64,000 bases of DNA from Conus ventricosus (taxonomy: Eukaryota; Mollusca; Gastropoda; Neogastropoda; Conidae), in NCBI GenBank assembly GCA_018398815.1, contig CM031609.1:26750815-26814814 (forward strand). Direction: 5' to 3'. How positions within the stretch are numbered: the stretch's first letter is position 1; each line of letters begins with the position of its first letter. The position numbers and the translations under genes were made by a program. A model generated the notes under the pieces. That model did not search any database. It was not told where the DNA came from and was given only the letters and a program-made list of their open reading frames with translations. Of this stretch, positions 19,496 to 64,000 are shown in pieces.

Positions 19496-19499
19496 CAAT

Positions 19500-43020: not shown

Positions 43021-43569
43021 AAGAAGAATAAGAAAAGCCACTACTTAGGGAGCCAAGGAGAGGACACAGCTGACCTTCGGTTGGTCATGGTGTGGATACA
43101 ATGACACGAAAAGAATATGATAATTTCTATGCTTCGTCACAGCTCTTCGCTGAAGACACACAGAGGATTACACTGCAGTTGAAGGAAAAAACCAAAGGGA
43201 GGTTGAGGGTGGGGAGAGTTATCACTGACGGCCTTTGTGTTAGGGAAAAAACAAAAACAAAAAACGATGTCAACGCTATGTCACACTGCGCAGAAAGTCT
43301 ACTGTTCTTTCATTTCCCCTCATTTTGTCAGTAGCAGTAGTAGTAGTCGTATTTTAGCAGTACATGTTTGTTGTTCTTTTTATCGTGCCTCAGATTTCTC
43401 AATCCTCGTTCTTGTTTTGTTTTGTCTCCCAGTTTCGTTACTTCTCCCGCACCTTCAGGTGTATCTTTTTCTTTTCTTGTTCGTTACACATTTTGTAAAC
43501 AAACAATAAACATGTAAATAAACGAAGAAGACTTTTTTTGTTTAAAAAAATTCATCTTTTTCTGTTTCT
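43021..43569. other. spacer between two tail-to-tail LINE-B copies
   Basis: No domain recognised. The right end is T-rich on the plus strand and carries AATAAA-like motifs near 43505, perhaps polyadenylation-type sequence. Confidence 0.4.
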
Positions 43570-45016
43570 TCTTCTTCTTCCTAAAATACTGGTTCACTCA
43601 AAAACGAGTAGGTCACCAGCGCGCATTTTAAAAAGTAAAATAAGATAACTTTAAAACAGTGCGACTCAGACTGTTGGCCCCCTGGAGCAAATTTGGCAAA
43701 AAGGGGGTCGCGCTCGATATTCAAGAAGTTAAAAGCAATGGCCAAATTCAGGCCCAGGTAATAGTAAAATATTCGGGGAAGTAAAAATAGAAATCGTCAA
43801 TATGCAGATCTCCAAAACTGTCGAATCAATTTGTTTTTTGAATGAGATGCATTTGTGGCAATCTTGATGGCACCCGGCAGTGAGTTCCACAGCCGTACAG
43901 AACTGGGATAAAAAGAATGTAAGTGGCTGTCAATATTTGATGCAGGTATGGTATAACATTGACCGCCACTCCTGGTGCTACTTTTATTCAATACCTAGTT
44001 GTTCCATTGGAATATCAATTATTTTAGCTCTGCCTTTAAAAGGATGTTAAGTTTGATAAAAGCTCTTCTCTCTCAAAGGGGTTTTTCCATTCTAATTTCC
44101 TCATGTTTTTCCCTAGTATTCCCCTTTTCTTGTGTGGTTCCTGTTACGAACCGTGCTGCTCTCTTCTAAATCTTTGGGAGGTTATCAATGTCCTTTAGAT
44201 GGTAAGGATCCCAAACTGAGAAACCCATATCCAGTACTGGTCTAACCAGTGTTTTGTAGCAGTCGTCTTTAACCTTTGGGGGCAGTCATTGATATTCCTG
44301 TATAAGAAAGCTAAGATGTTATTTGCTTTCTTACATACTAAATTGTAATGTTCTATCCTTTTGAGACGACTATCTATAATCACGCCTAAATATTTGCAGC
44401 TTAGTTTCTTTAAGAAAGTATTATGGATGGGAATAATCTGATCTAATTGGTGGCGTTTTTTTACATATACGAACACTTGGCACTTTTGGGGATGAAATTC
44501 CATTTTCCAAGTTCTTTCCCACTCTTGAAGCGTTTAGATCTTCTTGTAGAATGCGTGTATCATTCTTGCTTCTGATTGATCTATTTTACTAAGCTGTCAT
44601 CTGCAAAAAGCCTTTACTAGTTCCAGGAGAGAGATTTCAAATTATGTCATTTATATAATTAAGAAAAACAAGGCCCAGAACAGTTCCCTGTGGTACACCT
44701 GACAAGACTGGTTTACAATGGGATGACGACCCTTCCACAACATTTCTGCGTTCTCCCAACGAGGAATGATCTAGCCCATTTTAGCAAAGAACCGCAATGC
44801 CAATGTGTTCTAATTTAAGCAGCAGGCCCTCATGGTCAACCTTATCAAAGGCTTAGAAAGTCTAATAAATTGCATCTATTTGCTGTCTGTTGTTTAAGCC
44901 CAGTTATTAAATCATTGAGAGTTGTTATAAGTTGAGTCTCACAAACTCCTTCGCTGTCTAAAACCATGCTGGGCGTTATTTAAGAAGTCAAGAATGGTCC
45001 ATTATGCTACTATATA
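43570..45016 (-). pseudogene. LINE-B (CR1-like) reverse transcriptase C-terminal half and 3' UTR
   Basis: Minus strand: NNAQHGFRQRRS (about 44965), motif A DFxKAFDKVDHEGLLLKLE (about 44860), motif B SGVPQGTVLG...INDI (44700-44650), then KKLSCKYLGVIID (about 44400), ASNIDSHLHSFYPSSVRLW (about 43930) and the 3' UTR to 43570. Several one-base frame breaks are present. Its upstream half is not adjacent; it resumes at 49891-51420 across the inserted Ty3/gypsy element. The joined frame reads continuously at the insertion point (LEHI, then IYSSIMDH), the usual CR1 sequence there. Confidence 0.85.
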
Positions 45017-45060
45017 TTGCTGACGTATGCACGCACGCTAGAACTCACATCAAAGCAATC
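45017..45060 (+). repeat. 44-bp gag-derived direct repeat at the 5' edge
   Basis: Identical to 45657-45700 inside gag, including bases that differ from the right-arm copy of gag. It sits where the body of the 5' LTR should be. Confidence 0.92.
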
Positions 45061-45101
45061 TAAAGCTAAAACGGTCACTACATTATATTGGGGGACGACG
45101 G
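45061..45101 (+). promoter_or_regulatory. 5' LTR remnant and primer-site candidate
   Basis: 'aaaacggtcactaca' (ending 45082) matches the LTR terminus ACGTCACTACA. Six bases on, TGGGGGACGACGG starts with the TGG expected for a tRNA-complementary primer site. The tRNA was not identified. Confidence 0.6.
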
Positions 45102-45181
45102 ACGAAGAAACGAACCAAAAGAACGATCGTTGTGATTTGTTGAGTTGGTAAGTACGACCCGATCGAGTCAAACTTCCAAAT

Positions 45182-46110
45182 GGCTGCTGCGCTTCCCACG
45201 TACCCTCCATTCGACTGTTCTTCAGAAGAAAGGGAAAACTCGATGGCAAAAATGGGTATAAAGGCTGAAGAATCTCTTCGTTGCCTACAATATTGAAGAT
45301 GACCAGCGTCAGAAAGCACTTTCTACTCACCTATGCTGGTGTGAACTCAATGACATTGGGGGACACCTTCACGAACGAACAAACTCGTCCTGTGGTGGCC
45401 GAAACCCATTTTCAAACGCTTGTTTCTGCCATCACCGAACTTTTTCAATCCTCAAACCAAATGTAGAGTTTCAGAAATACATATTCCGGCATAGCTACCA
45501 GAAAGTTGATATTGACGATTTTTATGGGAATTGAAACACTAGCAACAACATGTAACTTCAAGATGCAGATGTGAGATAAAATCTAAATTCATCACAGGCT
45601 GCCAATGCCATAAGGTACGTAAAAAAGGACTAGCAAGCCCCATGACTCTAAAAGATTTGCTGACGTATGCACGCACGCTAGAACTCACATCAAAGCAATC
45701 AAAAGCAATGACTGTGCCCAGCAGGGTACACCGTTTTTCGCACGAGGACGCCCTCGTAGCCATCAACATAATCGACAACCGCAAAAAACCAACCACTTGT
45801 GCAATTGTGGTGGAGAATGGCCTCATCCTGGTGGACAACGCTCTGTCCAGCATACAACAAGCGATGCAACAACTGTTCAAAACTACACCACTTTGCATCA
45901 GTATGCCCCTCAAATACCAGTGCCACATCTTATCATCATCAACAAAAAACCTTGTCCAAGAAACCAAAACATTTCAGCTGGAAGAAGAAATCAAGAAAAT
46001 TTACACATTCATCAAAAACGCAAAAGCAGTGATGAAGATGAAGCCAATGCTATCGTTGTCAGTCTACCGATCCTGGTGATATTGGGTACGTCTTCACACA
46101 CATCAATCCA
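45182..46110 (+). pseudogene. gypsy Gag with two zinc-knuckle-like motifs
   Basis: The frame opens at the ATG at 45182 (MAAALPTYPPFDC) and continues after shifts through capsid-like segments: RQKALLLTYAG (about 45310), YQKVDIDDFY (about 45490) and LTYARTLELTSKQSK (45660). The nucleocapsid part has CHNCGGEWPHP-like and CNNCSKLHHFASVC (CX2CX4HX4C, about 45855) motifs, which bind nucleic acid. A basic tail follows. At least three one-base shifts break the frame. Confidence 0.8.
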
Positions 46111-46440
46111 GTGAACTTCCTCATTTTAGCGTTTTATCAATGGACATGTTTTTTCTTCCTAGCAGATTCCGGTGCTTCCATCAATCTGCTGTCTGAACAA
46201 CATTTCAACGAACTCAAGCCGAAACCCAAAACTACAGCTTCCCAAAAAGCGAGAAGTGACAGCGTATGGCAGCAAAAGTTCAATCCCAGTACTTGGTGCA
46301 TTCAATGCTCTACTAATTGTGAAAACACCAGTATTACTGCTACCATGTTTATAGTATCGGCAATAGCGACCGATTCTCTCCTGGAAAAACGTGTCAAGAT
46401 CTCAGCTATTGACCACCATCAACCATGTCAAAAACCCAAA
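46111..46440 (+). pseudogene. gypsy aspartic protease
   Basis: ADSGASINLLSEQHFNEL (from about 46160) carries the DSGA active-site motif of retropepsins. The C-terminal part is in another frame. Confidence 0.8.
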
Positions 46441-46479
46441 ACCCTGAACAATTGAGAGAAGAGTACCTGAAAAATATTC

Positions 46480-47265
46480 AGTGGTCTTGGTTGTTTGAAA
46501 AGCAAACCCGTCCATCTCCATATAGATCCTGAAGTTCAACCAGTGCTCAACCATACCCACTGTTTCCTTCCATGTGCGCAAGGACATAGAACAGCTGAAG
46601 AAAGACAAGAACTGGGAATCTTGAAAAAAAACAAGCGGACAACTCCATGGGTATCTCCAGTGGTTGTCGTACCCAAACCCCAAAAAAACCTGGCAAGGTA
46701 CGTGTTTGTGTGGACATGAGAGCTGCAAAACCCTGCAATCCGACGTGAACGTCACTCAACCCCAACTCTCGACGAGCTGAAGACCATGCTTTCTGGAGCA
46801 CGAGTATTCAGCAAGCTGGACCTGAATCAAGGCTACAATCAGCTGAAATGGACAAAGATTCTCGCTCCATCACCACATTTGCCACTCACCTCGGTCTCTA
46901 CCCATACCGTCGTCTGTTTTTTCGGTGTAAATTCAGCCAGCGAGATCTTCCCAAGGGAAACAATCCGCCAAGCACTTTCAGGCTCCCGGGAGTTGTCAAC
47001 TTTAGCGACGACATTCTGTGTTTTGGGTTTGTCACAGACGACCATTTACACCAACCTCCGCAAAATTGTTGAGAGACTCAGACTGAAAGGGCTGCACTTC
47101 ATAGTGACAAGTGTGAGTTCAACAAGAAATCGCTGGAATTTCTTGGATTTATCTTCGGTGAAGACGGCATTAAAACCTGTCAAGATAAGCTCAAGGACAT
47201 CCTTGATCTTCCAACGCCCTCCAGTGCAACCGAAATCCGAAGCCTCCTGGGCATGATGAATTTTT
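46480..47265 (+). pseudogene. gypsy reverse transcriptase
   Basis: Recognisable blocks in order: PVVVVPKPQKN (46660), FSKLDLNQGYNQL (46807; catalytic Asp of motif A), the FFGV/FPR substrate-strand region (about 46920), NFSDDIL in place of YxDD (about 47001), FLGFIFGEDGIK and a LLGMMNF thumb motif near 47240. Frames alternate because of indels. Confidence 0.85.
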
Positions 47266-47299
47266 GTGGTTCCCGCCCCATCCCAACTATGCCTCATTG

Positions 47300-47690
47300 A
47301 CACACGCCTGCGACTATTCCAAGAAAGGCACTCCTTTGGGCCTGGACATAAAACATGATAAAGCACTGACCAAACTGAGAAAAGCCCTAAGTAATGCAAC
47401 AACTCTTGCGTATTTCGACCCAAAGAAGTCCACTGACATATACACAGATGCAAGTCAGTGGGAGTATCAGCTATACTTACCCAAGAAAGGGCGAATCATC
47501 CAATTCGCAAGCAGAGCTCTTTCACCCCCAGAACAAAGATACTCTCAAACTGAACGAGAAGTTTAGCTATCGTTGTGGTCTTGCGAAAACTACCACATCT
47601 TCATTTTTGGGCTCCATTCACGGTCCACACAGAAACAAAGCCCTTGGTGTCAATGTTTTAAATTTTGGGGTCAATTGTCTGCTCTATTGA
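47300..47690 (+). pseudogene. gypsy RNase H
   Basis: DIYTDASQWEYQLYL (47436) has the first catalytic Asp in the TDAS motif. It continues with IIQFASRALSPPEQRYSQTE (47495) and the IVWSCENYHIFIFG segment. Confidence 0.85.
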
Positions 47691-49115
47691 ACGGGGTTAT
47701 GCGACTGCAGTCATATGAAATGACAGTAGTGTACCGCCCTGGTGTTGATAAAACCTGCAGATTATCTGAGCCGAAATCCAGTCCATCAATCTTCCCGCAC
47801 AGACCAAGAAAAGACGCCGAAGAATATCTGCACTACATTGTTACCACTTCAACACCGAAAGCAATGACCATCGATGAAGTTGCTGAGAAACAGCGAAAGA
47901 CACCACGCGAAAGCTGTGATGAAGCAATACTCTCCCAAACAAATGGTACAACAAAGGACAAGAAGTGGACACACAAACATTCCATAGTCTCTACGTTTCT
48001 GTGCAGAACGTCACTTGTTCACGACTTGGTATCATTCTGAAAAACCGCCAGATTGTCTACCGCCTCCCCTACACCAGAGAGCTGTGAACATCCACACACT
48101 GGACATCAAGGCGTTTCAAGACAACCGCACTTCTGCGTGAGAAAGTTTGGTTCAAAGGCATGCAACCTCTGTTGAACGTACAGTTAAAACTGCATGACTG
48201 TCAAGTGGCAACACCAAAAACGACACGTGAACCTCCCGATGTCTGATCTACCCAACGACCATGGACCGAACTTTCCTGTGATTTCGGACATCTTCCCAAT
48301 GGCAAATAATTCTTGTCGTTACCCATGAGTATTCCAGGTACCCCATTGTTGACGTGCTCGATTCAACATCAGCTAACACCGTCATTCCACGTCTGGACAA
48401 AATCTTCGCTGAATTCGGGGAAACCCGGAAAGTCTCAAAAATGACAATGGACCTCCCTTCAATTCCCCCCAGTTTGCTCAATACGCCAACACATGGGCAT
48501 CAAGCATCGCCAAATCACCCCCCTATGGCCCCGTGCAAACGCAGAGACGGAACGTTTCATGCGCACCATCAAGAAAGTCATCAAAACATTACCCTCCCAA
48601 CTTCAAGCAGGAAAAGTACAAATTTTACTTGGGCTACCGCACTACCCCTCACTGCACCACCGGTGTTTCCCCTGCTACCGCCTCTTTAATCGCAATCTGA
48701 AGACCAAACTACCCCCCTCCAGCACAATCCCATGATGCTGACCAGGAAAAGCGCGTCAGAGATGCACAGCAAAAAGCAAATATGAAGCGCTACGCTGACG
48801 ATAAGGGATACATCAAGCCTTCATCCATAACCGTAGGTGATGCTTTTACTCCTGAAGAATCCCCATCCTTCTAAAGCTGACACTCCCTACCAGCCAACCC
48901 CCCTTGTGGTCATCGGCAAGAAAGGATCAATGATCACAGCCCAGCGAGGACAACAAACTGTCACCCGAAACAGCGTTTCTACAAAGTCTCCCCGATTCCA
49001 TTACTGCAAGCTGAACCGATCCCCCTGAGCTGATAGAGAAAGTGAATTCCCCCAACCTCGACCTCGAGGCGCACACCACCCCAACAAATTTCTCCATAGC
49101 ATCACACGCCTGTGT
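47691..49115 (+). pseudogene. gypsy integrase and pol C-terminus
   Basis: After MRLQSYEMTVVYRPGVD come a degraded zinc-binding H/C region (about 48085-48215), the core ELSCDFGHLPN and THEYSRYPIVDVLDST (48258-48365) with the first Asp, then KNDNGPPFNS-type sequence near 48440 with the second. PPYGPVQTQRRN and LGYRTTPHC follow near 48520-48640. The C-terminal part to about 49115 is unremarkable and no chromodomain is recognised. Frames are broken in many places. Confidence 0.8.
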
Positions 49116-49229
49116 TTGAACCCAGAAAATCCAAAAGCACAATCCGAATGCCCCCCAAATTTGATGACTTCTCTGTGATTTGTCTATTTTTGGAAGTGAA
49201 AACATAATTTTATTAATTGCAACCACATT

Positions 49230-49244
49230 TCCCGAAAGGAGAGT
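49230..49244 (+). promoter_or_regulatory. polypurine tract candidate
   Basis: 'cccgaaaggagag' directly precedes the 3' LTR start TGCAGTGACATG; the right-arm copy has the same purine block at 60011-60022. Confidence 0.6.
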
Positions 49245-49890
49245 TGCAGTGACATGCTGTTATTTTGTTCATTTTTGTAGGTGCACATCCCAGTGTTCTC
49301 TTGCCTTACAAGATTAAAAATTTGTTATTTGTTATTATGTTGGTTTAACAAAGTTTCACACCCTTATTACTATGTGATTTATTCTACATTATTTATTTGA
49401 GAGGGAAAAGAAAAAAAAATATTTTTTAAAAAAAAAAAAAGGGTTTAATGTTGAACAGTTTAAACATAATTAATCAACATGAAAAGTTGGCCTTCATTTT
49501 AAATTTTTTATTTTTTTATTTTTTTAACTTTAATTCCTTTTCAGTGAAACCGGAAAAAAAAAATGTTTAAACTTTTAATTTTTTTATTTTAAAGGGAAAT
49601 GATACTTGTGAAAAGTTAAATGGAAACTTTGGATGTTTGTCCATCAATTTTTTAAATTTTACTTTTTATCCAAGGAAGGAGGGGTTTTAGTTTTATTTTT
49701 GTCGCAATCTAAGGGAGTAATGTTTTTCTTAATTATTATTATTATGGGGAGAGTTAAAAACCCCCTTTAAGGGTTTTTGGAGATGGTCATCAACGGCTCC
49801 ATAAAAAACTCAAACTGTTAGCCGTGTTTATCAATTTACAGTGGATTGATCAGGGTGAACAAAAATGCAATAATAATAAAACGGTCATAC
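49245..49890 (+). repeat. 3' LTR of the nested gypsy (left arm)
   Basis: Starts TGCAGTGACATG and ends near ACGGTCATAC. The right-arm copy (59345-60010) has cleaner ends, TGTAGTGACG...GTGCACTGCA read on the plus strand. AT-rich, with an (ATT/AAT)n stretch near 49730. Confidence 0.75.
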
Positions 49891-51420
49891 TTATATATAT
49901 TTGTGTTAAATTTGTTTTGCCGATTGGTGTAAGAGTAAAGGTATGTCTTGTTTTGTTTTGTCACCCCTTTTTTAATAAAGGGAAAATGCTCGCATTCCCC
50001 CTCACAGGTATTACTCCCTTTGGTCCAGTGAAGTTTGGTAAAATAGTTTGGGATTTCCCCACCAAAATTATTGGAAAATAAATTTTTAAAAGGGTTGCCA
50101 GGAACGCCATCGGGGCCAGTGCTTTTTTTTTCTTGGTTGGGCAGTAAAAATTAATTACTCCTGCTTTGTTTACTTTTATGTTTTGCTTTCAGGGAGTTTA
50201 TTATCTTTTGTTAAAGTTTTTTAAGGGGTTTTGGGATTTTAGAAAAAAGAAAAAAACTGTTGTTTGTAAGTTTGTTTCCCTTCAGGGTCCTGTATTGGTT
50301 TTTGGGGTTTCTCAGGTCTGGAATCCCCAAAGTTGTTGTCCTTATCCTTTGTAAAAACATAATTTTTTTTTTGTGATCCCTTTGAAATACGAATTAAAAA
50401 TATTGGAGTGAGCAAGCCTACATTCTCTCTGACACCTTCTCTTAATATGTTTATACCTAACCAGTAATCTTTCTGAATTAGGATGCAGTTTCAATTTCTT
50501 AAAGAAACGATGTTTCCTTCTCAACAAACGTTTAGTTTTTGTAGTAATCCATGGCTGGTGGTTCTTGCTTGAAGTTATTTTAGTAGGTATGTTGTCATCC
50601 ATAATAAATTCCAAGTTAGTTTTTATACACTTCCAAAGGTCACTGACATTATCTTTAACCACTATGGGACCTTAAAAAAGACGACTGAAATCATGAGTAT
50701 CCCTGCGCAATTTTGGTAAATCTGCTTGGTTCCAGAGTCTGATGGTACGTTTAGGGGGTTTTCTTCGAAAGGGTTGAAAGTTGCTCTCTAAGAGAATTAT
50801 GTCATGATCACCCAGGCCTGCAATTAATTCCTGATTGCCTAAAGCGCCTGGACAATTGGTAAAAAATAAATCCAGGAATGCCTTACCACGAGTTGGTGCT
50901 TCAACTGACTGCACTAATCCAAGGTCTTTGGTGGCATCAAAAAACTGAGTATTAATATTTTTACTGTATTGATTACCAAGTATGGCATCTTCACCCCAAT
51001 CAATATCTGGTAAGTTTAAAGTCTCCACCAATCCATAATATTGCCTTCCTATTGGCCAAAACAATGTTAGAAATGTCTCTGCAGATAGACGAACATACAT
51101 TTCATCTGAGTCTGGAGGTCTGTAAAACTGATCCAACAATGACAGGTCTCTTATTCTTAAAATTAATCTACTTTGTTTCGTTTTGCCTTGTTTGAAGTAA
51201 AACTGAGGTTGAAAATTGGGACAAATTATTTTCATAAATCATTTCAACAACAGTAGAGCCTTCGCTACACAGCATACTGCACCAGAGCAATATTGAGGTT
51301 CCTTTTTCATTAGAACACCTCTGGAATGGAACCTCTTGGTCAACACTACCGTCCAGCAGCAGAATGCCAGCGCCTTCTCCACTGCACTAGGCAGGGTTGA
51401 GGCGGCTGTTTTCCACCATT
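49891..51420 (-). pseudogene. LINE-B endonuclease and N-terminal RT (left arm)
   Basis: Minus strand: EN segments STVVEMI, FYRPPDSDEMYV (about 51125), NLPDIDWGEDAILGNQY (about 51010), FLDLFFTN (about 50870), and AGLGDHDIILLESN (about 50815), which holds the D-H pair of the catalytic site. A linker with HQPWITTKTKRLLRRKHRFFK follows (50560), then RT N-terminal GPDGVPG-like sequence near 50110. The 5' end is truncated at a 21-base C run (51424-51444). The downstream half lies at 43570-45016. Confidence 0.82.
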
Positions 51421-51423
51421 AAA

Positions 51424-51444
51424 CCCCCCCCCCCCCCCCCCCCC
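51424..51444. repeat. poly-C run at LINE-B 5' truncation
   Basis: 21 C at the 5' boundary of LINE-B; the right arm has an equivalent G-rich run at 57775-57792. Confidence 0.9.
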
Positions 51445-51641
51445 TGTTTTTAATCTTTAAAGTCTACACTGCGCAAACCATTACTGGCTCCTGCAGCTAG
51501 CCGCCAACCAACGAGTAGGCTAGAGGCGGAGATCCAGCCAGATCCAGATGGCCAGTGGCCGCTGCGACAGCAGAGCCGAGAGACCGCACGACTAGACACC
51601 GGCGAGATACTCGCACGCTTTCAACAGCCGACCGCGAGACT

Positions 51642-51840
51642 ATGACGTCAGAAATACAACATGCGGCGTTTCAGTCGCACACAAAGCTGAAAGGAAAACC
51701 GTTTCGTCCACATGCAAGAACTATAAGAATCTAAATGACACCCGCAAAAACCCGGACCTATGTGATGCATTTGTATCCATTGATGGTCTTAAAATCAGCG
51801 TGCAGAAGAGTGTTTTGTCTGCCGCTAGTCAGTATTTGAG
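51642..51840 (+). CDS. gigaxonin-like BTB protein, first coding exon (left copy)
   Basis: ATG at 51642 (MTSEIQHAAFQSH), then after a frame slip NLNDTRKNPDLCDAF, VSIDGLKISVQKSVLSAASQ and YLR, ending at a strong splice donor AG/GTGAGT (51841). The pattern CDA..., VQK..LsAAS.YxR is the start of a BTB/POZ domain and is closest to my recollection of gigaxonin (KLHL16), a Cullin-3 substrate adaptor. BTB domains dimerise and bind Cullin-3. The frame slip near 51690-51730 coincides with shortened A runs compared with the right copy, so it is probably sequencing error. Later exons (rest of BTB, BACK, Kelch) are not in the window. Confidence 0.65.
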
Positions 51841-52049
51841 GTGAGTTGATCGTTCGTACATACCGCATCATTATGGGCATGTCAGCAACTTTTCTTTTCT
51901 TTCTTATTTTTAATGTTGAATCAGTAAATAACTTTACTGGCAAGAACTGAAGTAACTGATCTTGCTATGCTCAACAGCCCACTGTTTTAAGTGCTGTGCA
52001 CTCTAGTACATGTACATGACCGGGGTCTTCGCTTCAAAGTGATCTTACA

Positions 52050-52330
52050 TAAGTTCATAAATGTTTTTTGACACAATTGCTAGTAGTTCAGTTCAGTTCA
52101 GTTCAGTTCACTTGGGACTTTGGTAGCCTCACAGCTTTTTGGTCCCAATCATCTTATTTCTAAACATGGTTGCTTAATGCATGCATATGCTCAGGAAAAA
52201 TTATTTTATCTATCCAGAAGCTTTTTAAAAGTATTCAATCTTTTGCTTTTTTAATGTGTGCAGGTAGTTTGTTCCAATACGGTGCCACTCTGTTACTAAA
52301 TGAAAATTCTAATATTAGTGCGACATATTA
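52050..52330 (-). pseudogene. LINE-C C-terminal fragment (left arm)
   Basis: The minus strand encodes SNRVAPYWNKLPAHIKKAKD-like sequence, then a 3' end with a (TGAAC)n tail (52084-52112 on the plus strand as TTCAG repeats). It has a deletion of about 50 bp relative to the right-arm copy. Confidence 0.65.
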
Positions 52331-52407
52331 TTTGTTTAGAAAATTTTTAGGTTTAAGTAGGGAATTTTAAAATTGGTTAAATTTAATGTTTCTTTTTTTA
52401 TTTTATG

Positions 52408-53407
52408 NNNNNNNNNNNNNNNNNNNNNNNNNNNNNNNNNNNNNNNNNNNNNNNNNNNNNNNNNNNNNNNNNNNNNNNNNNNNNNNNNNNNNNNNNNNNN
52501 NNNNNNNNNNNNNNNNNNNNNNNNNNNNNNNNNNNNNNNNNNNNNNNNNNNNNNNNNNNNNNNNNNNNNNNNNNNNNNNNNNNNNNNNNNNNNNNNNNNN
52601 NNNNNNNNNNNNNNNNNNNNNNNNNNNNNNNNNNNNNNNNNNNNNNNNNNNNNNNNNNNNNNNNNNNNNNNNNNNNNNNNNNNNNNNNNNNNNNNNNNNN
52701 NNNNNNNNNNNNNNNNNNNNNNNNNNNNNNNNNNNNNNNNNNNNNNNNNNNNNNNNNNNNNNNNNNNNNNNNNNNNNNNNNNNNNNNNNNNNNNNNNNNN
52801 NNNNNNNNNNNNNNNNNNNNNNNNNNNNNNNNNNNNNNNNNNNNNNNNNNNNNNNNNNNNNNNNNNNNNNNNNNNNNNNNNNNNNNNNNNNNNNNNNNNN
52901 NNNNNNNNNNNNNNNNNNNNNNNNNNNNNNNNNNNNNNNNNNNNNNNNNNNNNNNNNNNNNNNNNNNNNNNNNNNNNNNNNNNNNNNNNNNNNNNNNNNN
53001 NNNNNNNNNNNNNNNNNNNNNNNNNNNNNNNNNNNNNNNNNNNNNNNNNNNNNNNNNNNNNNNNNNNNNNNNNNNNNNNNNNNNNNNNNNNNNNNNNNNN
53101 NNNNNNNNNNNNNNNNNNNNNNNNNNNNNNNNNNNNNNNNNNNNNNNNNNNNNNNNNNNNNNNNNNNNNNNNNNNNNNNNNNNNNNNNNNNNNNNNNNNN
53201 NNNNNNNNNNNNNNNNNNNNNNNNNNNNNNNNNNNNNNNNNNNNNNNNNNNNNNNNNNNNNNNNNNNNNNNNNNNNNNNNNNNNNNNNNNNNNNNNNNNN
53301 NNNNNNNNNNNNNNNNNNNNNNNNNNNNNNNNNNNNNNNNNNNNNNNNNNNNNNNNNNNNNNNNNNNNNNNNNNNNNNNNNNNNNNNNNNNNNNNNNNNN
53401 NNNNNNN
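52408..53407. other. assembly gap (1000 N)
   Basis: Exactly 1000 N, a different placeholder size from the two 100-N gaps, suggesting another scaffolding step. Open frames across it are meaningless. Confidence 0.99.
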
Positions 53408-53559
53408 TGACCTGGCATCCCATCTTGTGCACATATTCCCGATATGGATCAAGGACATGTACATAGTGTGAATAAAACAAACAAACATGGAAGAATGAAT
53501 GGTAAGACAGGGAGTCGTTAAGAGTGCAAGGTATGGAGCAAATGGATGCTTGGTACTGT

Positions 53560-56500
53560 ACACCAATATGGACAGCTTTTTGAACAAAAAAGATGAGTTT
53601 TTTTACGAGAATACACGAAATTAAACCTAGTATAATTGGTCCCACTGAAATAAAACCCAAGAATACTAAGAATTTTATCGAATCAGAATACCATATTCCA
53701 AAGTACGATATGTTCTTAAATAACAAAATAAGTAGAGGGGTAGCATTATATACAGAGAAATCCTTAAACGCACATGAATGTGACCAACTAAACACATCTG
53801 AGTTCCAGGAAAGTGTATAGTGCACATTTAATACTAAAGATAGAAACACAGTATTACTTGGCTGCATCTATAGAAGTCCTAACGAGAGTTCTAAAGCTAA
53901 TGATGAAAAAATGTTTGATCTGTTTAAAACCTGATATAATGTTAAAATTTGACAAAGTATTGATTATGGGTGATTTCAATTACCCATTTGTCAGATGGGA
54001 TGGAAAGTGGTCAGGGGAGAAAGGTAAGCAAATTGTTGAAAAAATCAATGATGCATACTTGATGCAGAAAGTTAACAAACCAACGAGGTGACCAGGACAG
54101 AACCCAACTTTGGATGACTGGATATTAGTGAACGAGGATAATCTTATTTCAGACATTACACACCAGGATCCAGTTGAAAAAAGTGACCATGATGTACTGT
54201 CCTTTGAATTTTATGTATTAACAAACTACAACATAAAACCAAAGGCAAGATACACTTTCAATCTGAACAAAGGAAATTATAACCAACTGAGAAGCATTAT
54301 AAGTAACCATGATTGGACAACAATGGACCAAATGAATGTAGAAGATAGTTGGAATCACCTCAAAGGAGTACTAACAACAGGTATGGAAGAGTGCATTCCA
54401 AAGTGAAAATAGGTTCGGTGAAAAACATAAAGCTGACATGGATAGATGGAAAAGCATTTAAAACAATCAAAAAGAAATATAAGATGTTCAAAAGATATTT
54501 GTGCACCAAATCAGGACGGGATTACCTAAGATATATTGAGATAAAGAATGTAAGCAACAGACTTATTAAGAGAAGCCGTAAAAATTACGAAAGAGAAATA
54601 GGTAAAGAAAGAAAAAGTAACCCAAAATGTTCTGGAAATATGTTAAAGAAAAGATAAAAATAAATACTGGAATAGGCACACTGAAAAGGAAAGATGGATG
54701 TTTGGCAGATAACGATAAAGAAAAGGCAGAACCGCTAAATGACTTCTCTAGCGTTTTTACATGTGAGGACCCAAGTAGCGTTCCAAACTTACCTGAGTGT
54801 TCCCGATCTGATGGTATATCTATATATGTAATGTAAGGGTAACCACGCATGCACTGATGCAGTTAAAAGCAAACTGAAAGAGTTAAACCCTAACAAGTCT
54901 CACTCTCAAGGTCCTGATCTCATTCCACCACGAGTGTTAAAAGAAGTAAGTGATGAGATAGCTAGTCCACGACGTAATATATTCAACAAATACTTAGAAA
55001 CAGGGACTTGCCTAGAGATTAGAAGACTGCAGAGGTCACAGCTGTATTTAAAAAAGGTCCCAAAACAGACCCAGGTAATTACAGGCCGGTGAGCTTGACT
55101 TGTACTGCATGTAAGATTTCAGAGAGCTTTGCAAGGGATGTGGTAGTTGCTCATTTTACTGAAAATGAATGCTAAATGCCAACATGGATTTAGGAAAAAG
55201 AGATCATGTGTCACACAATTACTACAAGTAATCTACAACCTAACAGAACTGATTGATAATGGGGAGCCAATTGACATAGTGTACTTGACTTTAGAAAGGC
55301 GTTTGATTCTGTCCCCATGAAAGGCTGCTAACTAAACTAAAAAGCATATGGAGTAAATGGTAATGTTCTAATCTGGATCAGAAGTTTTCTTAAAGGAAGG
55401 TCACAATTAGTGAGAGTGGGAGAAGAGAGATCCAAGACATCTGAGGTACTAAGTGAGTTCCACAGGGTAGTATCCAACTATTCCAAGGGCCCATATTATT
55501 CACTGTGTTCATTAATGATTTACTGGACATGACTCAAACCACATCCAAAATATATTTATTTGCAGATGACACAAAAATATATTATAAGATGACAAACAGC
55601 ACAAAGATTCAACAGGATATAAACAAGCTACAAGAATGGTCAGATGAATGGAACCTTTACTTCAATGTAGCGAAATGTAAGGTGATGCAAATTGGCAAAA
55701 AGAATGAACAGTTTGAATATACTGTGCACAAAAAGAAACGCATATTTTTTTCACTGAAAATATTCAGGAAAATTTTGACAGAAACATGCCCAGTATATCA
55801 GGGTCCAGTGTGAACAGTCAGACATAATGAACAGACATAACAATAGATTGATGTCTTATTTCTTCTGTGGTTGTAATATTTTGAATGCTAAATGACGCAT
55901 GAAATGACTGAAATAAAAATATGTGCATAGTGCATGATTGTGAACGATGAATCGCAGAAAATAAATGATGAAGAAACAGATCTGGGAGTTACCTTTGATA
56001 AAGATCTATCCTTTGATCCTCACATCCAGCGAGTTGTAAATAAAGCAAATCAGATGACCGGACTCATCAGGAGAACTTTTACCTTTCTAAGAAAAGAAGA
56101 CATTTATCAAGTTATTTAAAGCATTTGTTAGGCCCCATCTCGAATACGCTAATGTAATTTGGAGTTCCCATTTTAAGAGACAGTAAAAAATGATAGAAAA
56201 TGTACAAAGGCGAGCTACTAAAATCCTGAAAGTGTGTAGTAATTTAAAATATAAAGAAACTATAAAGAAAGATTACATTATCTCCAATTACACTCACTCA
56301 ATGGAAGGAGAATAAGAGGTGACCTAATCCAATTTTTGAAAATATTCCTTAATTATGATGATATTAATGTGCATGCACTTTTCAAATTCTCAGAAGTTGA
56401 TAGCACGAGAAATATGAAGGCAAGATTTTAATCAGACATTGCCATGCTAACAAAAGAAAGTCTTGCCTTGCTTTCAGAATTGCTAGTTACTGGAATGCGC

Positions 56501-56600
56501 TGCCTACTAACACTAAATATGCACCTGACATCAACAATTTAAAAAATTTCTAGATGAAGACCATAAATTGAAAGACCTTTTCTTTAGTGTGGTTTGAATG
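53560..56600 (+). pseudogene. LINE-A ORF2: endonuclease and reverse transcriptase
   Basis: EN: IKPSIIGPTEIKPKN (53625, catalytic Glu), VLIMGDFNYPFVRWDG (53960), EKSDHDVLSFEF (54178; Asp-His). Then a long basic linker (about 54390-54660). RT: NKSHSQGPDLIPPRVLKEVS (54893), a QHGFRKKRSC-like block (about 55180), motif A near 55285-55310, motif B near 55450-55500, FINDLLDM (about 55507) and FADDTKIYY (55558; the YADD-type catalytic pair is intact). The C-terminus resumes at 55934 (NDESQKINDEETDLGVTFDK), passes RPHLEYANVIW (about 56132), and ends ASYWNALPTNTK near 56510. Frame breaks make it inactive as written. Confidence 0.82.
55737..55933. mobile_element. short insertion in LINE-A ORF2
   Basis: About 190-200 bp separate ...FEYT from MIVND..., which are contiguous in the LINE reading frame. 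The insert starts 'acaaaaagaaacgc' and ends 'aaaaatatgtgca', with GTGCA repeated at both edges as a possible target duplication. It has no coding capacity, so it is a small non-autonomous element of unknown type. Confidence 0.6.
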
Positions 56601-56749
56601 TAATGTTATTTTATAAGATAGGCATGCAACCAGACCAAAAAAAGAAGAAAAATAATGAGGGGACGCAAATTGGCCGAAAGGCCTAAGACCAAAAAGCCGG
56701 CCCCTACTACTACTAAGGGACTTAACAGTACAATTTTAACACATTTTTT

Positions 56750-57112
56750 CAACTAACCTCTAGCCTAATCAAATTAGGGCCTACAAGAAATTCTGATAAC
56801 AAAATCCAAATTAAATATTGTCGCACTAATATTAGAAAATTTTCATTTAGTAACAGAGTGGCACCGTATTGGAACAAACTACCTGCACACATTAAAAAAG
56901 CAAAAGATTCGAATACTTTTAAAAAGCTTCTGGATACTAACGCTGAGTTAAATATGTTAAAATTTCAATTTGATTGATCAGAATAGATTAAAATATATCC
57001 TGAGCATATGCATGCATTAAGCAACCAATGTTTAAGAAATAAGATGATTGGGACACAAAAAGCTGTGAGGCTACCAAAGTCCCAAGTGAACTGAACTGAA
57101 CTGAACTGAACT
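56750..57112 (+). pseudogene. LINE-C C-terminal fragment with (TGAAC)n tail (right arm)
   Basis: Encodes SFSNRVAPYWNKLPAHIKKA (about 56845), then FKKLLDTNAEL, the usual C-terminal tail of CR1-like RTs. A 3' UTR follows, ending in (ACTGA)n at 57088-57112. A mirrored, shorter copy is at 52050-52330. Confidence 0.7.
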
Positions 57113-57354
57113 ACTAAGCAATTGTGTCAAAAAACATAAACTTATGTAAGATCACTTTGAAGCCGAAGACCCCGGTCATGTACATGTACTAGAGTGCACA
57201 GCACTTAAAACAGTGGGCTGTTGAGCATAGCAAGATCAGTTACTTCAGTTCTTGCCAGTAAAGTTATTTACTGATTCAACATTAAAAATAAGAAAGAAAA
57301 GAAAAGTTGCTGACATGCCCATAATGATGCGGTATGTACGAATGATCAACTCAC

Positions 57355-57568
57355 CTCAAATACTGACTAGCGGCAGACAAAACACTCTTCTGCACGCTGT
57401 TTTTTAAGCCATAAATGGATACAAATGCTCACATAGGTCCGGGTTTTTGCGGGTGTCATTTAGATTCTCTAATAGTTTTCTTGCATGGTGCTGACAAGAA
57501 AACCGAGTTTCCTTTTCAGCTTTGTTGTGCGACTGGAACGCCGCCTTGTTGGAAATATCTGACGTCAT
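57355..57568 (-). CDS. gigaxonin-like BTB protein, first coding exon (right copy)
   Basis: Minus-strand ATG at 57568 (MTSDISNKAAFQSHN). This copy reads in frame through HHARKLLENLNDTRKNPDLC, where the left copy is broken. It then carries indels in the following GLKISVQ segment, which is intact in the left copy. It ends at the same AG/GTGAGT donor (57354-57348 on the minus strand). HHARKLLENL before LCDA fits the helix that precedes the BTB core in gigaxonin-like proteins. Each copy is damaged at different, mostly homopolymer, positions, so the real exon is probably intact. Confidence 0.65.
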
Positions 57569-57799
57569 GTCTCCGCGGTGGGCCCTGAAAGCGTGCGAGT
57601 TTTTCGCACGGATGTTTTTCTATGTCTGTGGTCTCTCGGCTCTGCTGTCGCGGGGCCCCAATGGCCATCTGGATCTGGCGGATCTCCGCCTCTGCTAGTC
57701 TTTGGGTTTGGGCGGTTTAGCTGCAGGAGCCAGTAATGGTTGCGCGTGTAAGACTTTAAAAGATTAAAAACAGGGGGGGAGGGGGGGGGGGGTGTTAAT

Positions 57800-59344
57800 G
57801 GTGGAAAACACCCGCCTCAACCTGCCTAGTGCGTGGAGAAGGCGCTGGCATTCTGCTGCTGGAGGGTTTGTGTTGACCAAGAGGTTCCATTCCAGAGGTG
57901 TTCAAATAAAAAAGGAACCTAAATATTGCTCTGGTGCAGTATGCTGTGTAGCGAAGGCTCTACTGTTGTTGAAATGATTTATGAAAATAATTTGCCCCAA
58001 TTTTCAACCTCAGTTTCTTCAAAAAGGCAAAACGAAACAAAGTAGGATTAATTTTAAGAATAAGAGACTGTCATTGTTGGATCAGTTTACAGACTCCAGA
58101 CTCAGATGAAAATGTATGTTGTTATCTGCAGAGACATTTCTAACATTGTTTTGGCCAATTAGGAAGGCAATATTATGGATTGGTGGAGATTTTAAAACTT
58201 CCCAGATATTGATTGGGGTGAGATGCCATACTTGGTAATCAATACATTTTAAAAATATTAATACTCAGTTTTTTTGATGCCACCAAAGACCTTGGATTAG
58301 TGCAGTCAGTTGAAGCACCAACTCGGGTTTAAGGCATTCCTGGATTTATTTTTTTACCAATTGTCCAGGCGCTTTAGGCAATCAGGAATTAATTGCAGGC
58401 CTGGGTGATCATGACATAATTCTCTTAGAGAGCAACTTTCAACCCTTTCGAAGAAAAACCCCTAAACGTACCATCAGACTCTGGAACCAAGCAGATTTAC
58501 CAAAATTGGCGGGGATACTCCTGATTTCAGTCGTCTTTTTTTAAGGTCCCATAGTGTTAAAGATAATGTCGTGACCTTTGGAAGTGTATAAAAACTAACT
58601 TGGATTTTATTATGGATGAAAAACATACCTACTAAAATAACTTCAAGCAAGAACCACCAGCCATGGATTACTACAAAAACTAAACGTTTGTTGAGAAGGA
58701 AACATCGTTTTTTTTAAGAAATTGAAACTACACCCCTAATTCAGAAAGATTACGGTTAGGTATAAACATATTAAGAGAAGGTGTCAGAGAGAATGTAGGC
58801 TTGCTCACTCAATTATGTTAATTCGATGATTTCAGAAGGTGATCATCAAAACAAGAATTATGGTCTTACATAAGGAGTAAGAGACGGACAACATTGGGAT
58901 TCCAGCCCTGAGAAACAACCAGAATAACCTAATACAGGACCTGAAGGGAAAAGCAAACTTACTAAACAAGAAAGTTTTGTTCAGTTTTTCAATCCCAAAC
59001 CTTTAATTAACGTTAGACTAAAAGATGATGATAAACTCCCTGAAATGCAAACATAAAAGTAAACAAAGCAGGAGTATTTAAGTTATGCCAACATCAATAA
59101 AAACCCAAGCTTATGGCCCCGATGGCGTTCCTGGCAAGCTTTTAAAAATTATGTCCCAATGAATTGAGTGAGGTATACCAACTACTTTACCAAGCTTCAC
59201 TGGCCCAAAGGGGAGAAATACCTGATGAGTGGCGAGGTGCGAGCATTGTTCCCTTATCAAAAAGGGTGACAAAAAAAAGCGAGAACTATAGACCTGTATC
59301 TCTTACATCCATATCGGCTAAATACTTGAACACATAATATATAT
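57800..59344 (+). pseudogene. LINE-B endonuclease and N-terminal RT (right arm)
   Basis: Plus-strand counterpart of 49891-51420. EN segments with D-H (GLGDHDIILLESN, about 58400), the linker NHQPWITTKTKRLL (about 58650), and RT N-terminal sequence AYGPDGVPGKLL (about 59110), GEIPDEWRGASIVPL (about 59215) and NYRPVSLTSISAK (59285). It stops at 59344, where the gypsy LTR begins. The C-terminal half would lie beyond the window. Confidence 0.82.
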
Positions 59345-60010
59345 TGTAGTGACGTTTTAATTATTATTGCATGTTGTTCATCTGATCAATCACACTGTAA
59401 ATGTGTAAACACTGCGCTGAACAGTTTGATGTTTTTTATTGGAGCCGTTGATGATCCATCTCCTAGAAACCTTCAAGGGGGGTTACTCTCCCCATAATAA
59501 TAATAATGTAAGCAAATCATTACTTCCCTTAGATTGCAGACTAAGTAATAATTACATCACCTCCTTCCTTGGATGAAAAGTAAAATTTAAAAATAGATGG
59601 ACAACATCTCAAAGTTTCCTTTTAAACTTTTCACAGTATCTGATTTACTTTGAAAGTAAAATATTTGTAAGAATGTTTTAAACAGTTTTTCGGTTTCACT
59701 GAAAAGGAAATTCAAGTTACAAAGTGAGAAAATAAAGATTAAGTGAATGGCCCAATTTTCAGTTTGATTAATTATGTTTAACTGTTCAGACATTAAACTC
59801 CTTTTTTTAAAAAAATATCAATTAATTTTTTTTTCTTCTCTCCCTCAAATGAATAATGTAGGAATAAATCAAACATTGTGAATAACGGTTGTGAATACAT
59901 TTTTAAAAACCAACATAATAACAAATAACAAATGTTAATCTTGTAAGTGCAGGGGACACTGGGTTGTGCCCCTACAGAAATGTAACGAAAAAAACAGTAT
60001 GTGCACTGCA
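59345..60010 (-). repeat. 3' LTR of the nested gypsy (right arm)
   Basis: Plus-strand ends TGTAGTGACG at 59345 and ...CACTGCA at 60010 give inverted TG...CA termini. 666 bp long. It abuts LINE-B sequence 'acataatatata' at the insertion site. Confidence 0.78.
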
Positions 60011-60022
60011 ACGTCTCCTTTC
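60011..60022 (-). promoter_or_regulatory. polypurine tract (right arm gypsy)
   Basis: The minus strand reads 'gaaaggagacgt' immediately before the LTR. Confidence 0.6.
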
Positions 60023-60094
60023 AGGAAATGTGGTTGCAATTAGATGTGAAAATTTTGTTTTCATTCACTAAATTAGACAAGATCAATGAGAAGT

Positions 60095-63000
60095 CATCAA
60101 ATTTGGGGGGCATTCGGTTGTGCGTTTGGATTTTCTGGGTTCAACTACAGGCGTGTGAGTGCTATGAGAGTAATTGTTGGGTGTGGTGTGGCCTGCGGAG
60201 TGTCTGAGGTTGTAGGGAATTCAGCTTATCTTCATTCAGCTCAGGAGGAGGGTCAGGTTCAGTCTCTGCAGTAGATGGAAGTCTTTGGAGACTTTGTAAA
60301 AAACTGCTGTTTCTGGTTGGACAGTTTGTTTGTCCTCGCTGGGCTGGGGGGATCATTGACCCTTTCTTGCGATGACCACAAGAGGGGTTGGCTGGTAGGG
60401 GGGGTCAGCTTTTAAAAGGATGGGGATTCTTCAGGAGTACAGCATCACCTACGGTTATGGATGAAGGCTTGATGTATGCCTTATCGTCGGGCGTACGCTT
60501 CATATTTGCTTTTTGCTGTGCATCTCTGACGCGCATTTCCTGGTCGCATCAATGGGTTGTGCGGGGGGTTTGGGGGTAGTTTGGTCTTCAGATTGCGATA
60601 AAGGGGGGGGTTAGCAGGGGAAACACCGGGGGTTTGCAGTGAGGGGTAGTGCGGTAGTCAAGTAGAAATTTGTTACATTTTCCTGCTTGAATTTGGGGGA
60701 AAGGGTAGATGATTTGAGGGATTTTCTTGATGGTGCGCTGAAACGTTCCGTCTCTGCGTTTGCACGGGGCCATAGGGGGGTGATTTTGCGATGCTTGATG
60801 CCCATGTGTTGGCAGTATTGAGCAAACTGGTGGGAATTGAAGGGAGGTCCATTGCAGTTTTGAGACTTTCCGGGGGATTCCGATTCAGGGGAAGATTTTG
60901 TCCAGACGTGGAATGACGGTGTTAGCTGATGTTGAATCGAGCACGTCAACAATGGGGTACCTGGAATACTCTTCGGTAAGGGAAAAGAATGTATTTGCCA
61001 TTGGGAAGATGTCCGAAATCACAGGAAATTTCGGTCCATGGTGCGTTGGGTAGATCGGGACATCTGGAGTGGTTCACGTGTCGTTTTTGGTGTTGCCACT
61101 TGACAGGTCATGCAGTTTTTAACTGTACGTTCAACGAGAGGTTGCATGCCCTTTTAACCCAAAATTTACTCACGCAGAAGTGCGGTTGTCTTGATAACGC
61201 CTTGATGGGCAGTGTGTGTGATGTTCACAGCTCTTGGTGTGCGAGGCAGGTAGGACAATCTGGCGGTTTTTCGAATGATAGCAAGTCTGAACAAGTGACA
61301 GTTCTGCACGAGAAACGTAGGGACTATGGAATGTTTGTGTGTCACTTCTTGTCCTTTGTTGTCCACTGATTGGAGGGGTATTGCTTCAATCACAGCATTT
61401 CCCGGTGGTGTCTTTCGCTGTTTCATCAGAACTTCATCGATGGTCATTGCTTTCGGTGTGAAGTGGTAACAATGTAGTGCAGGGTATTTTTCGGCGTCTT
61501 TTTCTTGGTCTGTGCAGGAAGATTGATGGACTGGATGTCGGCTCAGATAATCTGCAGGATTATCAACACCCGGGCGGTACACTACTGTCATTTCATATGA
61601 CTGCAGTCGCATAACCAGCGTTCATATGAGCAGACAAATTTAGCCATAAAACATTGACACCAAGGGCTTTTGATCTGTGTGGGGCGTGAATGGAGCGCCA
61701 AAATGAAGATGTGGTAGTATTCGCAAGACCACACGATAGCTAAAGCTTCTCGTTCAGTTTGAGAGTATCTTTTGTTCTGTGGGTGAAAGAGTCTGCTTGC
61801 GAATTGGTTGATTCGACCTTCTTGGGTTAGTATAGCTGATACTCCCACTGGGCTTGCATCTGTGTATATGTCAGTGGACTTCTTTGGGTCGAAATACGCA
61901 AGAGTTGTTGCATTACTTTGGGCTTTTTCAGTTTTTGGTCAGTGCTTTATCATGTTTTCATGTCCAGGACCCAAAGGAAATGCCTTTCTTGGTAAGTAGT
62001 CGCAGGTCTGTGTCAATGAGGCATAGTTTTGGGGAAAGTGGCGGGAACCACAAAATTCATCATGCCAGGAGGCTTCGGATTTCGGTTGCACTGGAGGGCG
62101 TTGGAAAATCAAGGATGTCCTTGAGCTTATCTTGACTAGGTTTTATGCCGTCTTCACGAAAATGATTCCAGAAATTCCAGCGATTTCTTGTTGAAACTCA
62201 CACTTGTCACTATGAAGTGTCCAGCCTTTCAGTCTGTGTCTCTCAAACAAGTTTCGGAGGTTGGTGTCATGGTCTGTCTGTGACGAACCAAAACCAGAAT
62301 GTCGGTCGCTGATGTTGACAACTCCCGGGAGGCCTGAAAGTGCTTGGCGGATTGATTCTTGGAAGATCTCGCTGGCTGAATTTACACCGAAAAAAACAGA
62401 CGACGGTATCGGTTAAAAGACCGAGGTTTAGTGGCAAATGTGGTGATGGGCGAGAATCTTTGTCAGTTTCAGTGATTGTTGCCTTGATTCAGGTCCCGCT
62501 TGCTGAATACTCGTGCTCCAGAAGCATGGTCTTCAGCTCGTCGAGAGTTGGGGTTTGAGTGACGTTCACGGTCGGATTGCACGGTTTGCAGCTCTCATGT
62601 CCACACAAACAGTACCTTGCCAGGTTTTTTTGGGTTTGGGTACGACAACCATGGAGTACCCATGGAGTTGGTCCCCTTGCTTTTTCAAGATTCCCCGTTC
62701 TTTGTCTTTTTTCAGTGTTCTATGTCCTTGCGCACTGGAATGGAAAATGTCGGTATGGTTGAGCGACTGGTTGAACTTCAGGTTTTATATGGAGATGGAC
62801 TGGTTTGCTTTTCAAACACCAAGACCACTGAATAGTTAGGGTACTCTTCTCTCAATTGTTCATGTATTGGTTTGACATGGTTGAGGTGGTCAAAAGCTTG
62901 AGATCTTGACACGTTTTCCAGGAGAGAATCGGTCGCTTATTGCCGGATATATAAAAATTGGTTTGCAGTAATACTGGTGTTTTCACAATTTAGTAGAGCA

Positions 63001-63160
63001 TTGAATGCACCAAAGTATGGGATTGAACTTTTGCTGCCATACGCTGTCACTCGCTTGTTGGAAGGCTGTAGCTTTGGTTTCGGCTTGAGTTCGTTGAAAT
63101 GTTGTTCAGACAGCAGATTGATGGAAGCCCGGAATCTGTAGGAATGAAAAAACATGTCAT
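60095..63160 (-). pseudogene. gypsy pol (PR, RT, RNase H, IN), right arm
   Basis: Minus strand, from right to left. Protease: FRASINLLSEQHFNEL (about 63130), with the active-site Asp-Ser-Gly lost to a local change. RT: SDVHG/FSK and SDRHSGFG-region remnants (62840-62090). RNase H: INQFASRLFHPQNKRYSQTE with ALAIVWSCEYYHIF (about 61810-61720) and VDNPADYLSRHP (about 61560). Integrase: HTAHQGVIKTTALLRE (about 61200) and HYRTTPHC-like sequence near 60640. The RNase H to IN junction is clearer here than in the left copy. Confidence 0.8.
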
Positions 63161-63185
63161 TGATAGAACGCTAAAATGAGGAAGT

Positions 63186-64000
63186 TCATGGATTGATGGT
63201 TGTGAAGGGCGTATTCAATATCACCAGGATCGGTAGATGATCAACGATAGCATTGGATTTTTCATCACTGCTGTTGTCGTTTGATGAATGTGTGATTTTT
63301 TTGATTTCTTCTTCCAGCTGAAATGTTTTGGTTTCTTGGACAAGGCTTTTGTTGAGATGATGAAGATGTGGCACTGGTATTTTAGCGGCATACTGATGCA
63401 AAGTGGTGTAGTTTTGAACAGTTGTTGCATCGCTTTTGTATGCTGGACAGGAGCGTTGTCCACAGGATGAGGCATTCTCCCCCACAATTTTCGACAAGTG
63501 GTTGGTTGGTTGCGGTTGTCGATTATGTTGATGGCTACGAGGTCGTGCTCGTGCGAAATACGGTGTACCTCTGTGCACAGTTCATTGCTTTGATTGCTTT
63601 GATGTGAGTTCTAGGTGGCGTGCATAGTCAGCAAATCTTTCAGAGTCATGTTGGGGCTTGTAGTCCTTTTTCACGTACCTTATGGCATTTGGCCCGCCTG
63701 TGATGAATTGAGATTTTATCTCAGCATCTGCATCATTGAAGTTATGTTGTTGTAGTTGTTTCAATTCCCATTAAAAATCGTCAATATCAACTTTCTGGTA
63801 GCTATGCCGGAATATGTATTTCTGAAAACTCTACATTTGTTTGGGATTGAAATGTTCGGTGATGGCAGGAAACAAGCGTTTGAAATGGGGGTTTTGCCAC
63901 CAGAGGACGAGTTTGTTCGTTCGTGAAGGTGTCCACAATGTCATTGAGTTCATCACCAGCATAGGTGAGTAGAAGTGCTTTCTGACGTGGTCATTCTTCA
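63186..64000 (-). pseudogene. gypsy gag (right arm, partial)
   Basis: Minus strand includes FNDADAEIKSQFITGGPNAI (about 63735), ERFADYARHLELTSKQSK (63636) and zinc-knuckle remnants around 63470-63390. FADYARHLE is a better match to typical Gag than the left copy. The start codon lies outside the window. Confidence 0.8.

What the first reader, a model, noticed from the sequence alone, without database searches (positions are those of the whole stretch)
45254..64000. Inverted duplication of at least 7 kb around a 4.4-kb centre with a scaffold gap
Every feature from 45.25 to 52.33 kb recurs in reverse order and orientation from 56.8 kb to the window end, with a constant midpoint near 54.63 kb. 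The arms carry a host exon, two LINEs and a gypsy element. They differ by many indels plus a 50-bp deletion, so they are not one sequence printed twice. The arms lie on different contigs (1000-N gap at 52408). Either a real large palindrome exists, or an alternative haplotype was scaffolded inverted.
Basis: partly seen in the sequence, partly recalled or inferred. Interest (0 to 1): 0.75.

Follow-up and report, generated by a model that had tools for sequence, protein, structure and literature searches.

The report
Inverted duplicate from unpolished contigs
Two error-ridden copies of the same stretch of an animal genome, probably a mollusc's, were laid head to head across a gap of unknown size; this is most likely an assembly mistake and not a real giant palindrome.

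Summary
The inverted repeat is there: 45294-52334 matches the reverse complement of 64000-56807 (7401 columns, 6546 identical), and it runs into the window end. But no contig joins the arms. The left contig stops 73 bp past its arm, and the only link is a 1000-N gap. The "centre" is a 3.4-kb LINE-bearing stretch present only in the right contig.

The arms differ the way uncorrected long reads differ: 411 indels (334 of 1 bp) against 288 substitutions, and transitions:transversions 96:192, the random ratio. A gypsy-like element in the arms has 55 frameshifts in each copy against an intact relative; only 1 of 55 is shared by position and type. The single-base gaps are strand-specific and follow the same reading direction in both arms. 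So most differences are sequencing errors and do not show two separate copies in the animal.

Best reading: one locus written twice by unpolished contigs ("homotype" false duplication) and placed inverted, through a fold-back read or a flipped overlapping contig. An inverted haplotig remains possible. A real palindrome has no positive support. Read depth, Hi-C and the sequence beyond 64000 could not be examined.

The parts
45294..52334 (+). left arm of the inverted duplicate, at the end of the third contig
   Evidence: aligns to 64000-56807 reverse complement, 6546 of 7401 columns identical
56807..64000 (-). right arm, on the fourth contig; cut by the window end
   Evidence: same alignment
52408..53407 (.). 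1000-N scaffold gap, the only link between the arms
   Evidence: run of N
52335..52407 (+). last 73 bp of the left contig, not matched in the right arm
   Evidence: alignment stops at 52334; best alignment scores elsewhere 39 and 35, without a control
53568..56591 (+). LINE in the so-called centre, present once, in the right contig only
   Evidence: residues 1-941 of P0146, 743 of 908 identical, 16 frameshifts; RVT_1 PF00078 in 55457-55810
45192..49180 (+). gypsy-like coding stretch, left copy, broken by frameshifts
   Evidence: residues 2-1329 of P0003, 56 frameshifts in this longer stretch
60081..63987 (-). gypsy-like coding stretch, right copy, broken by a different set of frameshifts
   Evidence: residues 40-1329 of P0003, 55 frameshifts
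49886..51260 (-). LINE fragment of the left arm; its other half (43816-45017) lies beyond the gypsy-like element
   Evidence: P0125 residues 252-714 and 710-1117
58044..59342 (+). LINE fragment of the right arm
   Evidence: P0125 residues 280-711
51596..51841 (+). open frame with the host exon for the start of a BTB/POZ domain, left arm
   Evidence: PF00651, E 3.2e-5; gigaxonin, E 3.2e-4
57407..57619 (-). right-arm counterpart of that exon, frame broken inside the domain
   Evidence: open frame with similar letters; no BTB match in Pfam

Best explanation
One genomic locus (a host BTB-domain exon beside a LINE that carries a gypsy-like insertion) is written twice by two barely polished long-read contigs, the second copy in reverse orientation across a placeholder gap. 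Shown: the inverted match, the gap as the only link, and a raw-read error profile in both arms. Inferred: that the duplication arose in the reads or the assembly. Two routes are possible. In one, a fold-back (hairpin or missed-adapter) read ran through the locus and back. In the other, the end of the left contig overlaps the flipped right contig, the two were not merged because of 11-12% raw disagreement, and the scaffolder placed the right contig inverted. In both routes the 3.4-kb 'centre' is simply the unassembled continuation of the left arm.
For: No contig crosses the centre. 411 indels, 334 of them 1 bp, against 288 substitutions; 96 transitions to 192 transversions, binomial P = 1.0 against 1:2. 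Gypsy-like copies: frameshifts left/right 55/55, 48/50, 49/50 and 44/34 against four relatives (P0003, P0007, P0009, P0011). Left events with a right event of the same type within 5 alignment columns: 1 of 55, 4 of 48, 3 of 49 for the three relatives tested. Control: 4 of 4 randomly back-translated LINE proteins gave 0 frameshifts. Single-base gap spectra agree between the arms on the window strand (P = 0.29) and disagree in element sense (P = 6e-16; isolated gaps outside homopolymers P = 0.38 and 1e-9).
Against: No adapter was found and the fold point is not visible. The left contig's last 73 bp do not match the right contig's continuation, which a plain overlap would predict unless that end is bad. 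Error density is uneven: 5.3 frameshifts per kb in the centre LINE, 6.5-7.1 in the left-arm LINE, 14-17 in the right-arm LINE and 14 in both gypsy copies. Another part of the window also has indels in excess (11 indels, 1 mismatch in 2188 columns), so indel excess alone is not special to the arms; the density is. Mismatches are denser at 48.5-50.5 kb, unexplained.
Confidence: 0.62

Rival explanations
1. Retained haplotig: the right contig is the other allele of the locus, kept as a separate contig and scaffolded inverted next to its twin.
For: Assemblers often keep divergent alleles as two contigs, separated by a gap (PMC9516828, passages seen). Real divergence of up to about 0.7-1.5% could hide under the errors (assuming an error transition share of 1/3). 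The difference of about 50 bp near 52.2 kb and the denser mismatches at 48.5-50.5 kb could be allelic.
Against: No excess of transitions (96 of 288). Strand-specific gaps in the same reading direction in both arms are not expected of allelic differences.
Confidence: 0.23
2. A real palindrome exists, with near-identical arms of at least 7 kb around a spacer of at least 3.4 kb, and both arms were badly sequenced or polished.
For: The shared reading direction of the errors is what a single read through a true palindrome would also give. Inverted duplicates are reported to lower nanopore base-calling accuracy (PMC7229812, title, abstract and passages seen). Frameshift density is lower in the centre LINE (5.3 per kb) than in the gypsy copies (14 per kb), as if the unique part had been polished better.
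Against: No contig crosses the centre. The homology ends inside a LINE fragment (56783-56974), not at an element edge. The LINE left of the tested arm is as noisy (12.1-13.3 per kb at 43.8-45.0 kb), though its mirror could lie beyond the window. The left-arm LINE is noisy to about the same degree as the centre (6.5-7.1 per kb).
Confidence: 0.1
3. Two separate insertions of the same mobile elements, so that the arms are paralogous repeats and not one locus.
For: The arms are rich in LINE and gypsy-like sequence.
Against: The match runs through the host exon and the LINE/gypsy junction without a break, and the differences are read errors rather than divergence.
Confidence: 0.03

Closest known systems
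Homotype false duplication (PMC9516828, passages seen)
   Same: Two copies of one locus in one scaffold, a gap between them, excess sequencing errors.
   Different: Here the second copy is inverted ('inverted' does not occur in that paper's main text); depth, the defining test, could not be examined.
Artificial palindromes in long reads, from amplification or missed SMRTbell adapters (PMC6218980, abstract and passages seen)
   Same: Inverted repeat of one locus with raw-read errors; inverted duplications were seen in an assembly from such reads.
   Different: The fold point is not seen here; a 1000-N gap and a 3.4-kb stretch present once lie between the arms; no adapter was found.
Retained haplotig (haplotypic duplication; PMC7203741, start of abstract seen in the listing)
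   Same: Two contigs for one locus left in one scaffold.
   Different: The differences look like read errors, not allelic variants.
Genuine genomic palindrome, as on Y chromosomes (mentioned in PMC6218980)
   Same: Inverted arms around a spacer.
   Different: No contiguous sequence across the spacer.

Membership tests
Homotype false duplication | assembly gap between the two copies | tested here: met
   1000 N at 52408-53407
Homotype false duplication | excess sequencing errors in the copies | tested here: met
   private frameshifts in both arms, indel excess, random transition ratio; judged from frames, not from k-mers of reads
[quoted passage not shown] no heterozygous k-mers; discordant read pairs | not testable with these tools
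   no reads at hand
Fold-back or missed-adapter read | arms meet at one fold point, with or without adapter sequence | tested here: inconclusive
   the place is hidden by the gap; four recalled adapter sequences gave no convincing match, best sites outside 52.3-56.8 kb
Fold-back or missed-adapter read | both arms carry errors of the same reading direction | tested here: met
   P = 0.38 same direction, 1e-9 element sense for isolated gaps; also expected half the time for two unrelated single-strand contigs
Retained haplotig | allelic differences, mostly substitutions with a transition excess | tested here: not met
   288 substitutions to 411 indels, 96 transitions; a minor allelic part is not excluded
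Genuine large palindrome | contiguous sequence across the spacer joining both arms | tested here: not met
   the arms lie on different contigs; this shows lack of support, not absence of a palindrome
Genuine large palindrome | two copies by read depth | not testable with these tools
   no reads at hand

The most novel reading that the evidence does not exclude
A real palindrome with arms of at least 7 kb duplicates the BTB-encoding exon of a host gene in inverted orientation around a LINE-bearing spacer, with arms kept nearly identical (real divergence at most about 1%), perhaps by gene conversion, and it defeats long-read base calling because the strands fold back on themselves.
Probability: 0.1. 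Interest if true: 0.4.

Novelty: not a real feature. Interest (0 to 1): 0.08.

Why it matters
If left in place, the inverted copy would count as a second BTB exon, extra mobile elements and a spurious palindrome, and the frameshifts would be misread as pseudogene decay. The tests used here (indel excess, random transition ratio, frameshifts private to each copy, shared reading-direction bias) can separate read error from divergence from the sequence alone.

Tried and rejected
Adapter search: four recalled adapter sequences, both strands, best site only, 5 shuffles each. SMRTbell + equalled its best shuffle (36). Four of the eight searches were slightly above their best shuffle (SMRTbell - 35 against 33; ONT rapid + 29 against 28; the hairpin 29 against 27 and 29 against 24). 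All were far below a full match (56-100) and none lay at 52.3-56.8 kb. So no adapter is claimed, and a poorly read one is not excluded.

The tail 52335-52407 was aligned to the rest of the window: best scores 39 and 35, no control, so no origin is claimed. Long terminal repeats for the gypsy-like element: best score 40 against a maximum of 39 in 20 shuffles, none claimed. Rfam: 0 matches in the window. Pfam with the ten fragments first chosen: 3 of 10 had a family; of seven further fragments, 1 of 7 passed the curated cut-off. The gypsy-like element of the second contig (15.8-18.7 kb) is too distant from the relatives at hand (29-34% identity, 3.8-5.2 frameshifts per kb) to serve as a low-error control. 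The first tandem comparison in the first contig (shift 377) aligned overlapping sequence to itself and is void. Arbitration of 1-bp gaps by protein frame left 115 of 181 undecided with P0003 and 108 of 169 with P0009, so the direction test rests mainly on the spectra without arbitration. The own-genome search, which might have shown what lies beyond 64000, did not complete. The paper search gave one paper, not used.

Full report
Observation. The window has three gaps: 11445-11544 and 34400-34499 (100 N each) and 52408-53407 (1000 N). The inverted repeat is in the letters: 45294-52334 against the reverse complement of 64000-56807, 7401 columns, 6546 matches, 288 mismatches, 411 indels. It reaches the last base of the window, so its true outer limit is unknown. 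The left contig ends 73 bp after its arm; the right contig starts 3.4 kb before its arm.

Contents. The left arm holds a host exon that encodes the start of a BTB/POZ domain (Pfam PF00651, E 3.2e-5; gigaxonin nearest among solved structures, E 3.2e-4). It is followed by GTGAGT, which has the form of a splice donor (recalled). The right-arm counterpart has an open frame with similar letters but no BTB match, as expected if its frame is broken. The left arm also holds a LINE on the minus strand, interrupted by a gypsy-like element: residues 252-714 of a LINE relative at 49886-51260, gypsy-like coding at 45192-49180, LINE residues 710-1117 at 43816-45017. The right arm repeats this in mirror order as far as the window goes. 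The centre holds a LINE at 53568-56591, 743 of 908 residues identical to P0146. The host is probably a mollusc: the highest hit that names a species is Littorina saxatilis (P0011, 59% over 66% of the query). The nine hits above it name none, so this is a lead only.

The differences between the arms are mostly read errors. Indels outnumber substitutions (411 to 288), and 334 are single bases. Transitions are 96 and transversions 192, exactly the random 1:2 (binomial P = 1.0). Against four relatives the gypsy-like copies show, left and right, 55 and 55 frameshifts (P0003), 48 and 50 (P0007), 49 and 50 (P0009), 44 and 34 (P0011), without in-frame stops. The program charges a stop about as much as a frameshift and so can trade one for the other, so the lack of stops is weak evidence. 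Left events that have a right event of the same type within 5 columns are 1 of 55, 4 of 48 and 3 of 49 with the three relatives tested. Of any type they are 4, 9 and 6; within 15 columns, 7, 6 and 7 of the same type and 18, 17 and 16 of any type. By simple arithmetic about 8 of 55 of any type would fall within 5 columns by chance, so there is no sign of shared, inherited decay. Four of four random back-translations of intact LINE proteins gave 0 frameshifts in the same program. A 2.2-kb direct repeat in the contig 11545-34399 shows 1 mismatch and 11 indels in 2188 columns: indels exceed substitutions there too, but at about a tenth of the density in the arms.

The errors have a direction. Single bases missing from the left arm are A76 C64 T47 G13. 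Those missing from the right arm, read on the window + strand, are C52 A45 T24 G13. These agree with each other (P = 0.29), whereas in element sense the arms disagree (P = 6e-16) (counts again). Isolated gaps outside homopolymers give A+C against G+T of 54:19 (left) and 40:9 (right, + strand): P = 0.38, against 1e-9 in element sense. Each such count mixes deletions in one arm with insertions in the other. Where the protein frame decides which arm is wrong (66 of 181 gaps with P0003), deletions lean the same way: 13:7 and 16:4, P = 0.48 on the same strand, 0.0095 in element sense. Substitutions reject exchange symmetry between the arms (P = 0.002) and fit a same-direction model marginally (P = 0.06). 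Errors tied to the reading direction, and alike in both arms, suggest that each arm rests on one or few reads of one strand, both running along the window. One read passing through the locus and back would give this; two unrelated single-strand contigs would do so half the time.

What it most likely is. One locus is written twice by barely polished long-read contigs. If the right contig is turned round, it carries the left arm and then continues 3.4 kb past the end of the left contig. The 'centre' is then just the missing continuation, and the 1000-N gap a placeholder. Published marks of false duplication are a gap between the copies, excess errors, and very low depth for homotype cases (PMC9516828, passages seen); the first two are met, the third could not be tested. 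Palindromic reads from amplification or missed adapters are documented (PMC6218980, abstract and passages seen), but no fold point is visible here and no adapter was found. An inverted haplotig is possible: up to about 0.7-1.5% real divergence could hide under the errors, by the transition share assumed. A real palindrome is not excluded. Poor base calling in inverted duplicates is known for nanopore reads (PMC7229812, abstract start and passages seen), and that would be the most interesting way to keep it, but nothing in the sequence supports it.

Limits. No reads, depth, Hi-C or sequence beyond 64000 were available; the own-genome search was unanswered nine times. The frameshift test covers coding parts only. 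Frameshift density is uneven: centre LINE 5.3 per kb, left-arm LINE 6.5-7.1, right-arm LINE 14.1-16.9, both gypsy copies 14, the LINE left of the tested arm 12.1-13.3 at 43.8-45.0 kb and 5.7-9.2 at 42.3-42.8 kb. Neither this pattern nor the denser mismatches at 48.5-50.5 kb is explained.

Noticed in passing
42262-43031 and 43566-44336: A smaller inverted pair of LINE 3' parts about 0.5 kb apart: 720 of 792 columns identical, 42 mismatches (19 transitions) and 24 indels. Unlike the big arms, mismatches exceed indels, so real divergence is likely.
   Followed up: partly
13405-15580 and 19498-21681: A 2.2-kb direct repeat, 99% identical, on both sides of minus-strand gypsy-like coding sequence: it looks like an LTR element with unusually long terminal repeats. 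Its ends and target-site duplications were not examined.
   Followed up: partly
22487-26176: A tandem array of short units encoding QPTNQ-like repeats, open in several frames, itself arranged in two large copies 94.9% identical.
   Followed up: no
4174-7252 and 9105-9842: A noisy tandem array with an inverted partner in the first contig; one comparison gave 65 indels and 35 mismatches in 901 columns, an indel excess like that of the arms, so this contig may be unpolished too.
   Followed up: partly
43816-51260: A gypsy-like element lies inside a LINE: LINE relative residues 710-1117 on one side and 252-714 on the other, same strand.
   Followed up: partly
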